Shown: piece after piece, positions 1 to 64,000 of the stretch
Position numbering within the stretch: position 1 is the stretch's first letter
Layout of the letters: every line of letters starts with the position of its first letter
Origin: Norana najaformis
Lineage: Eukaryota > Annelida > Clitellata > Crassiclitellata > Hormogastridae
NCBI GenBank assembly: GCA_964023275.1
Contig: OZ029914.1
Coordinates: 42,325,924 to 42,389,923 of the forward strand
DNA: 64,000 bases
Reading direction: 5' to 3'
Notes under the pieces: generated by a model
Told to the model about the DNA's origin: nothing
Databases searched by the model: none
The model's input: the letters and a program-made list of their open reading frames with translations, nothing else
Program-made: the position numbers and the translations under genes

Positions 1-44
1 ATTGCACATCGGTTTACAAGTATTTAAGAACACAAGAATACCTG
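1..44 (+). CDS. Possible 3' end of a stalk exon cut by the window edge (gene 1)
   Basis: A frame open from base 2 reads ...VFKNTRIPG and ends at a GTGGGA donor in phase 1, the same ending (IPG before GTGGGA) as the exon at 2742-2792. The acceptor is outside the window, so this is only suggestive. Confidence 0.3.
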
Positions 45-3000
45 GTGGGAGCATATTTACCATGGTTGAGCTGTTGTGTGGTGGAAAATTTGCTGCTGAC
101 CTTTATTATTCCTTGCCCACCCAACAGTTGATATTTTGTGTTCTGCATTTTGCAGATTAATGACTCCAATTGTTATTTTGCTGCAACTTCATGAACTGAT
201 CCTTGACTGTCCTCTGCATTGACTCTTTGGTATCAACAGATTGTCATTATGCCCAAAATACTTTATCCTAAATATTATCTTTTCAGAATAAATGACACCA
301 GTTTGTTATCTTTAGATTTTGAAACAAAGAGTAGTGGTGATGGAGATTTTGAAACTACATTTCAAGGTACCACCTGTTATTATTATTTAACATTAGCTCA
401 AAATAGCCGCATTACCGCCTGAAATTAGAAAATGTTTTGAAAACATTGACAGATTTTTAAAATTTATGATGAAAACCCTGAGAATTCTTAACTATGATAT
501 ATAACACCATGGTTGCATGCTCAGAGGTCTTAGCTCTTGAGTGCCCTGTTGTCTTCACCTGTCCATCACAATCCAGCCTAAGCATAGGTAGACTGCAGTC
601 TACAGTATTGAGAACATCTGCTTGTCAGGTGTTGCAAATTGGGCACCATTCATTACATGACTAACTGCTCTTTTGTCCTGAGTCTGATTACAAAGCTTCG
701 ATGTAACAGTTACACATGGATATGCTATCTACGATGTCCTCCAATCTTTTGATCTCATCCTGTGATTATGGTCTAATTTTGTTTTGTTTCCTGCATGATA
801 CCAAATAGAAATATGCTATAGTTTGCCGATATTCAGCACCAAAAAATGTCTTATCAGACTAGCATTTGTCTCTGACAAAAACAGTTGGCTCCAGCAGGGG
901 ATTTTCATCCCGTTAAAGTGATTTCCAACATCGTGCTATGCATTGGAGGCTGTTTGATAAGTTTTTAAACATTTAATATTTTAATAATAAATAATGAGTA
1001 TATTCTTTTGTGAAACTGTTAATGTTCTTATTGTACTATTCATACAGATGCTCCTGAGGCAGGTGCAGCTGCTGGTGGTATTTACGTCGAGCCAAACGGT
1101 AAAGTATCTGCTTGAAAAACTTTCACTCATAATAATTAATAATCCATTGCAATATGAAGTTTTTTCTTCAAGAGCTAAATCAGATCCTGAAGAGTTTGTT
1201 TATTGTAATCTAATCTACGGTAATCTAGTGACTCTATAGCACCATTGTCATACAGCATAAATTGATGGTCACTTCAAGTGAAATAGTACTTAGTCAAAAT
1301 CATAATCTGTTGGAGAAGCCTGGTCAAAATCCGATAAGTGATTGGAAACCATGGTGGGTAAACAAGCTGATACAGCCGAGTCTTAAGGTTAGTTAGCTCT
1401 GGATGGCACTGGAGAACTGACAGATTGCACAGAACTGGGCAGTGAGTTCCAAATCTTTGGACCAATCGTCAAGAACGCCAAAGAGCCCAAGACTGTTCTG
1501 TTACGAGGCACCTATCCATTTGTGTGACACAATAGCTGACTGATTTGAGCGTTTTCTTGTGCAACATGAAATGTGCATGTTCAAGCCTCCCTCAATATGG
1601 TTACTGTGTAGGAACCTTGAGCACAATCAGCTGATGATTTGTCATTAGATCATGGTGCATAATAAATACAGAAATAATAGTAATATCCATCAGTGTAACT
1701 TGATGCAATGTATTTTGCATATTTAGCAGAGTCAGAGGTCATTTTCAAGTGAGCAGAGTGCAGCAGAGTTGAAGTGACGTACATGTGTAAAAATGTGTGT
1801 ATCTGTCATTTATTCTGCATCTTTTAAAAACCATGAAAGATGTTGGAACAGGGCTTTCTCCCGGATCTGATATTTGTGATAGTGTAAGATCTGATAAATA
1901 TGAAAGTACTAAATAGTAGTAAGCTTACTTGTTCCAGGTATAATTAAAGTACACTATGGCTTCTTTTCTAAAGAATGATGAAAGCTTTGTACGAATAATG
2001 AATATGCTTTGATTCTGTACATACAAGTAACGTCTTCACTCTTGTGACTCGTCAGACATTCATTTTTTTCTTGCGATAACTCTAATTCTGTTCTTTATGG
2101 AAAGATGATACTGACTTATAGTGTGAAATTATTTGTAGCTGAAGTGAATTCTAAAAATCCAGGTTTGTGTTTACTTTATATTTATATAGGGATTTATGTA
2201 GTGCTTATTTTTAATCTTATAAACGGCAATAGTTTAAACAGCAATAAGGTTCATCTACAAATTTCAGCAAATGTAATAGATAAAATTTGTAACAGATTGC
2301 ACTGAAACTTGGATAAAATTTAAACTGCACATTGTTGTGGATAGCCATAAAATTGAATTTCTATTGAATTTTTGAAGCTACACCAGTGTATAGGCCATCT
2401 TATGACAAGTAATCTCACGCTACGTTTTTGAATATCTTTTGACAGCAGAGGATGCCTGTTCTAGATTGGGAACATGGCATTTCAGTAAAATGATCAAAAG
2501 AGTTGAAACACAAAGTGACCAGTGGTGGACTCCCACAGACTTACTAATGGACTCCCATCCAGAGCTGATAGTTGACACTGTGTGTATAAGCATTTCACTT
2601 TGCTTTCCAATGGAATTAAAGTCGATGTGTTTATAGGATATTTTGCTAGCATCGTATGAATGTTTCATGTTTGAAAGTTTGAGATTTAAGGTATTAATTT
2701 TAAGCTTTACTTACACTGTTGGTGTTTTTATTTTGGTGTAGATGAAGGTCGTGCTGGTGGAAATTTAATTCCGAATCCGAATGAGATTCCTGGTGGGAAA
2801 ACTATCATTACTCTGCTCATATCTTGTTATGTTTTTCTCTACCTAGAACAGTCAATTCTGAAAAATATTTTTGGGTGTAAATTTGTTAAAGCCTTAAGGT
2901 TTTACAAAGTGATACTTTAGGTGACAAATTGCTAATATACAGAAAAAAGAGAGGAAACCAAGGCATTTATGGTAAGGAGTTTCTTGTCAAACTGTAGCCT

Positions 3001-4187
3001 GTTGGAAGATCTTGACCACTTGTTGGTTTGTTCTGATATGATTACACTTTAGGTGAACTATCCTTTGTCATTGGGTCAATGTTGAAAGAATCATGTAATG
3101 ATTACCTTACCTTAGCTCACCTTACCTTACATGTATAAAATTAGAACAAAGATAGAGTATCCTACACTGTTTATATTAAAACAAATAGTATGGTAAATTA
3201 ATGCGTAGCTTATATAAAATCCCCTAAAATATCCTTTGTAATGGTTAGTGCAGTTGACACAACTCAGGAAAAACAGTGATTCCACGAAAACCCTTACTTG
3301 AATTTACTTTCAGCATGTTCATGTTGGAAACTTCTTCACTCAGTGTAGCTCTGCAGAAGTTTGAGTTATGTTATGTGTTTTGGAAATGAAATTGTTATAC
3401 TGTTTGAATGTTCTGTAAATTTTGCAGGTGCACAATCAGGTGTGTATGCATTTGTTTATTTATTTAAACCTTTTCTTAGCAATTTTGTTTTGCAATTAAT
3501 GAAAACTAGATGCACCAAAGTGATGAAATATAAAGCTTCAAAACATATAGTAATTATATAATAATCCGGTCTGCCTGTCTGTCTGTCTGTCTGTCTGTCT
3601 GTCTGTCTGTCTGTCTGTCTGTCTGTCTGTCTGTCTGTCTGTCTGTCTGTCTGTCTGTCTGTGTATATAACTAAATAATTTTCCTACCCTGATTTCTCCG
3701 TTTCTCCTTGTCTTTCTTGTGCTCCAATTTCAAACACCATCCATAGTAGCTGTCTGCAGGTCGTCTACTTGCCTGATCTTTGGATCGGGACTTAAAACCA
3801 AACCTTGTCCCTGAATACTCTAAACCCTTTGAAGGATTATAAAGGCTGGATACTGAAGAGCATCATCCAGCATAACATACACACATGATTTATTTTGGTT
3901 TAGTGGCTTAGCTACTCCAAAAAGCTGATAATTGTGTATTATAATTACAATTAGGCCTATATTATAATTGTAAATTATATTATAATTATAAATATTATGG
4001 TTAAGCTGATAATTATATAGCAGAAAATTATGCTTTTTCTTGTAAACTGACTTTATTTTACATGTGTACAGGTGAATTTGATAAAACTAAAAACACCCAA
4101 AGCACTGCTGGCCACCATGTACGATCCATTTTCCTTGAGCTGTTCCTGCTCGTGTCTGGAGTCCTTTTGACACAGGTCGAACTTTGA
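1..4187 (+). CDS. Gene 1 (3' part): stalk and C-terminal anchor of an IgSF surface protein
   Basis: Only the 3' end of this gene lies in the window. Probable exons are 316-366, 1048-1098, 2742-2792, 3428-3439 and 4072-4187, all beginning after AG, ending before GT and joined in phase 1. A further exon may end at 44. The stalk exons read DFETKSSGDGDFETTFQG, DAPEAGAAAGGIYVEPNG, DEGRAGGNLIPNPNEIPG and GAQSG. The last exon ends in a hydrophobic C-terminus and a TGA stop. The layout matches the 3' ends of genes 2-4, which is the main reason for calling it. No Ig exon is visible here, so its domains lie upstream of the window. The donor at 2793 (GTGGGA) is weak and no clear AATAAA was seen close to the stop. 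Confidence 0.6.
316..366 (+). CDS. Gene 1 stalk mini-exon (acidic)
   Basis: The acceptor is ATCTTTAG and the donor GTACCA. The exon is 51 nt, phase 1 to phase 1, and codes DFETKSSGDGDFETTFQG. It resembles the acidic linker exons of gene 2 (22839-22943 and 24141-24215). The upstream AG at about 287 would give an immediate stop in the phase-1 frame, so the inner acceptor was chosen. Confidence 0.55.
1048..1098 (+). CDS. Gene 1 Ala/Gly stalk mini-exon
   Basis: The acceptor is CATACAG and the donor GTAAAG. The 51-nt symmetric phase-1 exon codes DAPEAGAAAGGIYVEPNG. The GAAAGGI core is shared with gene 2 (25744-25794), and related cores occur at 26699-26746, 40368-40412 and 55341-55388. That recurrence is the best evidence that it is real. 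Confidence 0.7.
2742..2792 (+). CDS. Gene 1 stalk mini-exon
   Basis: The acceptor is GGTGTAG. The 51-nt phase-1 exon codes DEGRAGGNLIPNPNEIPG. It begins DEGRA, as does the gene 2 linker at 22839. The donor GTGGGA is suboptimal. Confidence 0.55.
3428..3439 (+). CDS. Gene 1 12-nt microexon
   Basis: This very short exon (GAQSG once spliced) lies between TTTTGCAG and GTGTGT. The intron start after it (TATGCATTT...) resembles that after the gene 2 mini-exon 27393-27413, which supports homology. Exons this short need special splicing, so confidence is moderate. Confidence 0.45.
3574..3661 (+). repeat. (CTGT)n microsatellite
   Basis: About 22 nearly perfect CTGT units in the intron of gene 1 between the microexon and the last exon. 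Confidence 0.95.
4072..4187 (+). CDS. Gene 1 last exon: hydrophobic C-terminus
   Basis: After a TGTGTACAG acceptor the exon reads GEFDKTKNTQSTAGHHVRS, followed by a hydrophobic run (IFLELFLLVSGVLL), then TQVEL and TGA. A polar spacer with small residues followed by about 14 hydrophobic residues at the extreme C-terminus fits a GPI-anchor signal or a minimal membrane anchor. Unlike genes 2-4 it has no cysteine before the hydrophobic run. Confidence 0.65.
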
Positions 4188-63709: not shown

Positions 63710-63739
63710 GTAAGTATTTTTTGTCTCGGTCTTGTCCAT

Positions 63740-63960
63740 TCCTGGCCGAAGTTCCCTTCCCTCTGCTGCACAGCATGATCTGGTTTCTTCTCTGGCCCAA
63801 ACTTTCACGGGGCAGCAGAGAAACCTTTGCTGGGGTTTGTCCAACTATCTGGAATAGGTTGCCTAACACCCTGCAACATAAGCTCTTTGGTGTTTCTTAA
63901 CCTCTGTTCCGTAATAGCTTGAAAACCAGCTTGACAACAATTGACACAAGTTGCTCCTTG
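63740..63960 (+). mobile_element. LINE ORF2 C-terminal remnant
   Basis: The frame contains SRETFAGVCPTIWNRLPN, then TLQHKLFGVS and a stop, followed by CTGTTCCGTAATAGCTTGAA. It matches the usual LINE C-terminal IWNxLP pattern and starts right after the gene 5 C donor. Confidence 0.55.
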
Positions 63961-64000
63961 GGCTCCCGCTGTTGGCCCAATGAGCGTGGCTGTCTGAGAA

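What the first reader, a model, noticed from the sequence alone, without database searches (positions are those of the whole stretch)
1..64000. A tandem cluster of modular Ig-superfamily surface genes, apparently undescribed
Seen: five same-strand genes share signal, spacer, B, C, D, E/F, stalk and anchor modules in one order. Established: IgSF plus secretion plus surface-anchor signals usually mark adhesion or recognition proteins. Inference: this is a lineage-specific recognition receptor cluster, perhaps immune or self/non-self. I do not recognise the family; there is no fibrinogen domain (as in molluscan FREPs) and no cytoplasmic domain.
Basis: partly seen in the sequence, partly recalled or inferred. 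Interest (0 to 1): 0.88.

Follow-up and report, generated by a model that had tools for sequence, protein, structure and literature searches.

The report
Undescribed annelid surface immunoglobulin-family gene cluster
A worm chromosome carries a row of related, intact-looking genes for surface-anchored proteins built from repeated immunoglobulin-type blocks; the family matched no named protein in the databases searched and is a candidate set of cell-recognition molecules, but nothing here shows what it recognises.

Summary
The modular array is real: every module copy found lies on the + strand in one order, and the exons join by GT-AG, phase-1 introns into stop-free frames. The gene count is corrected. 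The window holds five complete B-C-D triplets, but only two units with ends of their own, II (30613-42362) and III (45208-58105); a composite unit I (7938-28241, triplets g1-g3, one family-type signal exon and one family-type anchor exon); the start of unit IV; and a candidate last exon of an upstream unit 0. g1 might instead end by itself at 14395. Spacer and stalk modules were not confirmed. The host is an annelid, not a mollusc. D, E and F look I-set-like and C is probably an Ig sandwich; B is unassigned. The only relatives found are 12 unnamed proteins. Best reading: a lineage-restricted family of tail-less, probably GPI-anchored IgSF recognition or adhesion proteins, diversified by duplication and perhaps by exchange between copies. 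An immune or self/non-self role is untested.

The parts
4072..4187 (+). Candidate last exon (hydrophobic anchor, stop) of upstream unit 0, whose signal candidate (-9200), B, C and D lie outside the window
   Evidence: weak similarity (E 0.28)
7938..8001 (+). Unit I, exon 1: signal peptide, phase-1 donor
10094..10495 (+). Unit I, g1 module B
12620..12988 (+). Unit I, g1 module C
13431..13814 (+). Unit I, g1 module D
14286..14395 (+). Possible alternative last exon for g1 (anchor-like, not similar to the family anchors)
   Evidence: chance match not excluded
14607..15020 (+). Unit I, g2 module B; 792 bp after g1 D
15703..16065 (+). Unit I, g2 module C
16662..17012 (+). Unit I, g2 module D
18670..19059 (+). 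Unit I, g3 module B; 1657 bp after g2 D
20188..20550 (+). Unit I, g3 module C
21787..22146 (+). Unit I, g3 module D
24564..24842 (+). Unit I, g3 module E
28120..28241 (+). Unit I, last exon: hydrophobic C-terminal anchor, stop
30613..30679 (+). Unit II (g4), exon 1: signal peptide
30954..31355 (+). Unit II module B
32490..32852 (+). Unit II module C
33313..33732 (+). Unit II module D
36101..36415 (+). Unit II module E
37790..38062 (+). Unit II module F
42235..42362 (+). Unit II anchor exon, stop
45208..45271 (+). Unit III (g5), exon 1: signal peptide
46665..47069 (+). Unit III module B
47736..48098 (+). Unit III module C
48480..48899 (+). Unit III module D
50368..50682 (+). Unit III module E
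51872..52156 (+). Unit III module F
57978..58105 (+). Unit III anchor exon, stop
60370..60433 (+). Unit IV (g6), exon 1: signal peptide; the unit goes on outside the window (D 64302-64652, E 65667-65981, F 66403-66678, anchor 68977-69095)
62372..62764 (+). Unit IV module B
63344..63709 (+). Unit IV module C

Best explanation
This is a tandem cluster of an undescribed, annelid-lineage family of immunoglobulin-superfamily cell-surface proteins. Each product is secreted through its signal exon and held on the outer membrane by a short C-terminal hydrophobic exon, most simply a GPI signal. It presents a rod of Ig-type modules: a B-C-D head alone in unit 0, a B-C-D head plus E and F in units II-IV, and three B-C-D heads plus one E in unit I as modelled. 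With no cytoplasmic tail it would act by binding partners through the ectodomain (recognition or adhesion) and signal only through a co-receptor. Shown here: exon order, phase, open frames, signal and anchor exons, and constraint on the copies. Inferred: splicing as modelled, GPI rather than a tail-less transmembrane anchor, surface location, and the binding role. Duplication made the copies; exchange between copies is suggested by uneven divergence among modules.
Confidence: 0.62

Rival explanations
1. Immune or self/non-self receptors: the copies recognise parasites, microbes or allogeneic tissue, and the cluster works like the Hydractinia allorecognition complex.
For: Tandem cluster, anchor, multi-Ig ectodomain, and modules of one gene pair that differ widely in divergence, F most. 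Graft rejection is reported in earthworms and leeches (review passages). Relatives elsewhere are several and g3 groups with three of them (97/97).
Against: dN/dS is below 1 in 55 of 55 computable pairs; F's dS is raised as well as its dN, so its divergence is no sign of positive selection by itself; no haplotype or expression data; no signalling tail; no orthology to a known receptor found.
Confidence: 0.25
2. Cell-adhesion molecules of development or the nervous system, or gamete-surface proteins, that have expanded in this lineage.
For: Purifying selection dominates; the best fold neighbour of C is a nectin-like adhesion protein and the D/E/F profile hits MUC18.
Against: No named protein matched, although named annelid proteins are in the database, which is odd for conserved developmental adhesion; the searches' length and word limits weaken this. 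A shared Ig fold shows no function.
Confidence: 0.25
3. Unit I is not one composite gene: g1 is a gene of its own (signal, B, C, D, last exon 14286-14395), and g2 and g3 belong to one or two others with unrecognised ends, nearer to the first reader's count.
For: A looser scan finds three anchor-like open ends (13826-13959, 14286-14395, 14312-14436) in the g1-g2 gap, 0.14 expected at the flank rate; 14286-14395 has a pyrimidine-rich acceptor. Unit 0 as modelled has the same short plan, signal-B-C-D-anchor. One unrelated ATG exon candidate (17701-17758) lies before g3.
Against: None of these resembles the family's anchors or signals; none passes the stricter hydrophobicity cut; the g2-g3 gap has no anchor-like end in either scan; g2 would have no signal exon. 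The D-to-next-B gaps are 792 and 1657 bp, against 8.5-11.5 kb from D to the next signal exon elsewhere. I raised this rival from 0.15 to 0.25.
Confidence: 0.25

Closest known systems
Hydractinia Alr family (allorecognition complex)
   Same: Clustered, divergent IgSF genes for cell-surface proteins
   Different: Alr1 and Alr2 are single-pass transmembrane proteins of a cnidarian (passage); here tail-less proteins with B-C-D triplets in an annelid. No sequence comparison was made (the paper describing the family is not held).
Molluscan FREPs
   Same: Secreted lophotrochozoan proteins with Ig-type modules
   Different: No fibrinogen domain in the models scanned; an anchor exon instead; up to five modules, or ten in unit I as modelled
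Dscam / Dscam1
   Same: Multi-Ig surface proteins; unit I repeats could in principle be used as alternative cassettes
   Different: No fibronectin III match and no cytoplasmic tail; alternative use untested
Biomphalaria GRC/PTC2 clusters
   Same: Clusters of snail surface-protein genes, tied to parasite resistance (abstract in the listing, passages)
   Different: Single-pass transmembrane proteins; 'immunoglobulin' occurs once in that text and not for their domains
Olavius algarvensis 'novel immunoglobulin I-set / V-set proteins'
   Same: Annelid Ig-domain proteins listed with pattern-recognition proteins (16 and 9 transcripts, one table)
   Different: Only table lines were seen; no sequences to compare, so the relation is unknown

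Membership tests
Immunoglobulin superfamily | Ig domain recognised by a curated profile | tested here: inconclusive
   I-set passes (23.8 v 23.7 bits) for the E module of the C8 paralogue; the window's own modules scanned (one copy each of B, C, D and F and two of E; models g4 and g6 and g3 E) stay under every cut-off
Immunoglobulin superfamily | Ig sandwich fold | tested here: inconclusive
Immunoglobulin superfamily | Conserved cysteine pair placed as on the B and F strands | tested here: met
   For D/E/F: the third and fourth cysteines are invariant in 10 of 10 aligned rows (three D loops cut by me; g6 F not in that alignment). C has six invariant cysteines. B has none, so the feature is not met for B. 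Strand placing is my reading.
FREP | C-terminal fibrinogen domain | tested here: not met
   No such match in the two full models scanned, g4 and g6; every model ends in an anchor exon; none of the fibrinogen places listed in the genome lies in the cluster (list truncated)
Dscam | Fibronectin III domains and a cytoplasmic tail | tested here: not met
   No FN3 match in g4 or g6; the models end at or just after the hydrophobic stretch
Hydractinia Alr | Homology to Alr1/Alr2 | not tested
   Sequences not at hand
GPI-anchored proteins | C-terminal hydrophobic signal replaced by GPI | not testable with these tools
   The sequence pattern fits the five anchor exons; no predictor or assay was run

The most novel reading that the evidence does not exclude
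The cluster is an annelid recognition complex in which unit I uses its three B-C-D triplets as interchangeable, phase-compatible cassettes (spliced singly, in series, or into a short form ending at 14395), with exchange among copies adding variety: a set of diversified, GPI-anchored self/non-self receptors.
Probability: 0.12. Interest if true: 0.85.

Novelty: new variant of a known kind. Interest (0 to 1): 0.52.

Why it matters
A review seen in passages reports graft rejection with short-term memory in earthworms and leeches, mediated by cellular immunity; I recall no receptor being named for it. A compact, apparently intact, lineage-restricted IgSF cluster gives concrete candidate genes to test. 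Unit I also offers a clean test of triplet repetition against alternative cassette use, because every modelled boundary is phase 1.

Tried and rejected
Mollusc origin was rejected: the search with PF14830, recalled as a molluscan haemocyanin domain, found nothing (nothing rang in the controls either, so weak by itself), the Kv ORF points to annelids and PF16915 is present. I recalled clitellates such as Enchytraeus as fitting 17 chromosomes and about 600 Mb; untested. 'Immunoglobulin' has 0 occurrences in the held text of the Enchytraeus crypticus genome paper (find, passages only).

The 596-aa g5 B-F query found none of 1955 candidates at E<=10 and only noise in PDB; unspliced exons fall outside that query's length range, and the later C profile did find relatives, themselves limited by the search to about 68-215 aa. 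PDB profiles of B (two matches at E 0.46 and 0.85) and C (none at E<=10) were no use. NCBIfam, made for bacteria and archaea, gave no match for g4. The B model was not used. Profile comparisons B-C and C-D gave nothing.

Signal scan: besides the four family-type exons and the g0 candidate it gives four unrelated starts (8753, 17701, 26966, 44153), so it has false positives. Anchor scan: one search missed the anchors of g3 and g6 (2 of the 4 then used), so its blanks are weak; one search is looser and also finds unrelated hits. Stalk exon: no pair met the criteria. Spacer: no copy elsewhere. No E/F-type exon was found for g0 between -1946 and 7900.

Module trees: C joins g2+g6 (100/99) and rejects g2+g4+g5 (p-AU 0.0018) and g3+g4+g5 (0.030); D weakly favours g2+g4+g5 (82/83) and does not reject g2+g6 (0.139); B does not reject g2+g6 (0.079) or g2+g4+g5 (0.105) but rejects g1+g3 (0.037), which C weakly favours (83/93). 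The clades were chosen after seeing identities, so these p values are lenient. Column shuffles of the g4/g5 alignment (0 of 2000 as extreme, also for introns alone) show uneven divergence, which selection or mutation-rate differences could also give; only alignable columns were counted.

Paper searches for a description: snail, FREP; Enchytraeus; annelid IgSF; earthworm grafts; Alr; annelid Ig, GPI. None of the listings or of the passages opened describes this family; subscription papers are mostly missing from the library.
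Full report
WHAT IS THERE. The window lies at C2:42325924-42389923 of a 608-Mb, 17-contig genome. tblastn with one copy of each module finds six B, six C, five D, three E and two F copies in the window, all on the + strand. With 100 kb of flank on each side there are seven B, seven C, seven D, four E and three F, and no further triplet. A genome search with one B finds 7 places, all in this cluster. Of 22 matches to a C+D query, 17 are in the cluster, 4 belong to one further gene on contig C8 and 1 is at chance level, E 0.5. All 6 matches to an E+F query are in the cluster. 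These single-sequence searches miss divergent copies: the C8 gene has a B exon that one search did not report.

GENE MODELS. Aligning the paralogues gave shared splice sites. A scan for ATG exons with a hydrophobic core and a phase-1 donor found one sequence type of signal exon before g1, g4, g5 and g6, and a different one before g0. Anchor exons of one sequence type follow g3, g4 and g5 (E 7e-8 or better); weaker matches in the right place and phase follow g6 (E 0.055) and g0 (E 0.28, at 4072-4187 in the window). Without the stop codon the models give unit 0, 878 residues; I, 1286; II, 655; III, 659; IV, 627. None has an internal stop, and 33 of 33 introns are GT-AG and phase 1. Phase was used in choosing exon ends, so the intact frames are the real evidence.

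UNIT I. Triplets g1 and g2 are followed by no E, F or family-type anchor exon, and g2 and g3 are preceded by no family-type signal exon. The gaps from D to the next B are 792 and 1657 bp, against 8.5-11.5 kb from D to the next signal exon where a full 3' part is present. g2 and g3 are not decayed: 0 stops in 376 and 371 codons, where a substitution-only simulation gave about 11 stops each and 0 of 500 stop-free runs (the assumed distance of 0.35 is mine). The simplest reading is one gene with three B-C-D repeats. Against it, a looser scan finds three anchor-like open ends in the g1-g2 gap (0.14 expected at the flank rate), one of them, 14286-14395, with a pyrimidine-rich acceptor, and unit 0 has the same short plan that g1 would then have. 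None resembles the family anchors or passes the stricter cut, and g2 would be left without a signal. Alternative use of the triplets, perhaps with a short form ending at 14395, is frame-compatible and untested.

HOST. A 339-aa Kv-channel ORF 46 kb upstream is nearest, among named proteins in the 120 listed of 6016, to annelids (Capitella 73%, Dimorphilus 69%, Ridgeia 67%, Helobdella 62%), with the orthonectid Intoshia at 62% and the first named mollusc at 56%. PF16915, recalled as the annelid erythrocruorin-linker family, has 29 matches, best E 8e-32. The species was not identified.

RELATIVES. None of 1955 candidates from 5.8 billion proteins matched spliced g5. A seven-row C profile found 12 of 153 candidates at E<=1, from 2.6e-53 to 3.3e-32, all unnamed and without Pfam domains; their 106-172 aa lie within the search's length limits. 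On a tree of 20 C sequences g3 groups with three of them (97/97) and the cluster's seven copies are not one clade (at least two label changes forced; shuffled labels did as well in 142 of 500). So some duplications are likely older than the split from those sources, whose species are unknown.

EVOLUTION. Nei-Gojobori dN/dS is below 1 in 55 of 55 computable pairs of 64. In the recent pair g4/g5, exons B, C and D are 96-98% identical, E 93%, alignable introns 84% (8100 columns) and F 76.5%; flanks of E reach 92-94%. dS is 0.05-0.11 for B-E and 0.48 for F. F is thus older or faster than its surroundings, which fits replacement from another copy, among other causes. Module trees disagree only in part.

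FUNCTION. Signal, Ig-type ectodomain, 6-18 N-glycosylation motifs per model and a tail-less C-terminal anchor fit an outward-facing binding protein, GPI-anchored or nearly so. Recognition or adhesion is the best-supported role. Immunity, allorecognition, neural adhesion and gamete contact cannot be told apart here. The closest in organisation is the Hydractinia allorecognition complex (passages), whose proteins are transmembrane; it may work like it, and membership was not tested. FREP and Dscam membership fail on defining domains.

NOVELTY. No named family passed in Pfam for the window's modules, and none matched in NCBIfam (one protein), PDB or the protein database beyond general Ig similarity; no listing or passage seen describes it (and the passages in 11, 14, 73, 85-89). 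An Olavius paper lists 'novel' I-set and V-set proteins in two table lines, which could include relatives. I rate it a new variant of a known kind. Interest and odds are as first drafted, except the rival that splits unit I, raised from 0.15 to 0.25 because.

Noticed in passing
outside the window, -3642..-1966 relative to window base 1 (L017): The D exon of unit 0 carries a 478-residue stretch within its Ig-type loop, 27% Asp+Glu: by eye a charged, probably helical part and then an acidic low-complexity part. No Pfam family passes its cut-off for the 254-residue part tested.
   Followed up: partly
G000:C8:1725000-1735500, minus strand (L047-L049): A single divergent relative with B, a C split in two, D around a long acidic low-complexity insert, and E (I-set). 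It resembles g0 and may be the older form.
   Followed up: partly
G000:C2:42856288-43211976: Eight listed fibrinogen-domain places about 0.5 Mb downstream on the same contig; 160 matches genome-wide, a lower bound. Not checked for Ig modules.
   Followed up: no
G000:C5:36718918-36879561: 13 of the 29 PF16915 matches lie in this run, apparently a tandem expansion.
   Followed up: no
window 10892-11730: About 24 copies of a 35-bp tandem repeat, 96% matches, in the B-C intron of g1.
   Followed up: no
window 40563-40916 and 55522-55875: Similar open frames on the minus strand in the F-anchor introns of units II and III, in both copies and so probably older than their duplication; retroelement remains is my guess.
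   Followed up: no
window 52732-52926 and 38600-38760: An open frame after F in unit III whose counterpart in unit II is broken by stops; possibly a decayed further module.
   Followed up: partly
G000:C15:412069-412726 and 570464-571281: COX1-like stretches with stops under the standard code, probably nuclear copies of mitochondrial DNA.
   Followed up: no
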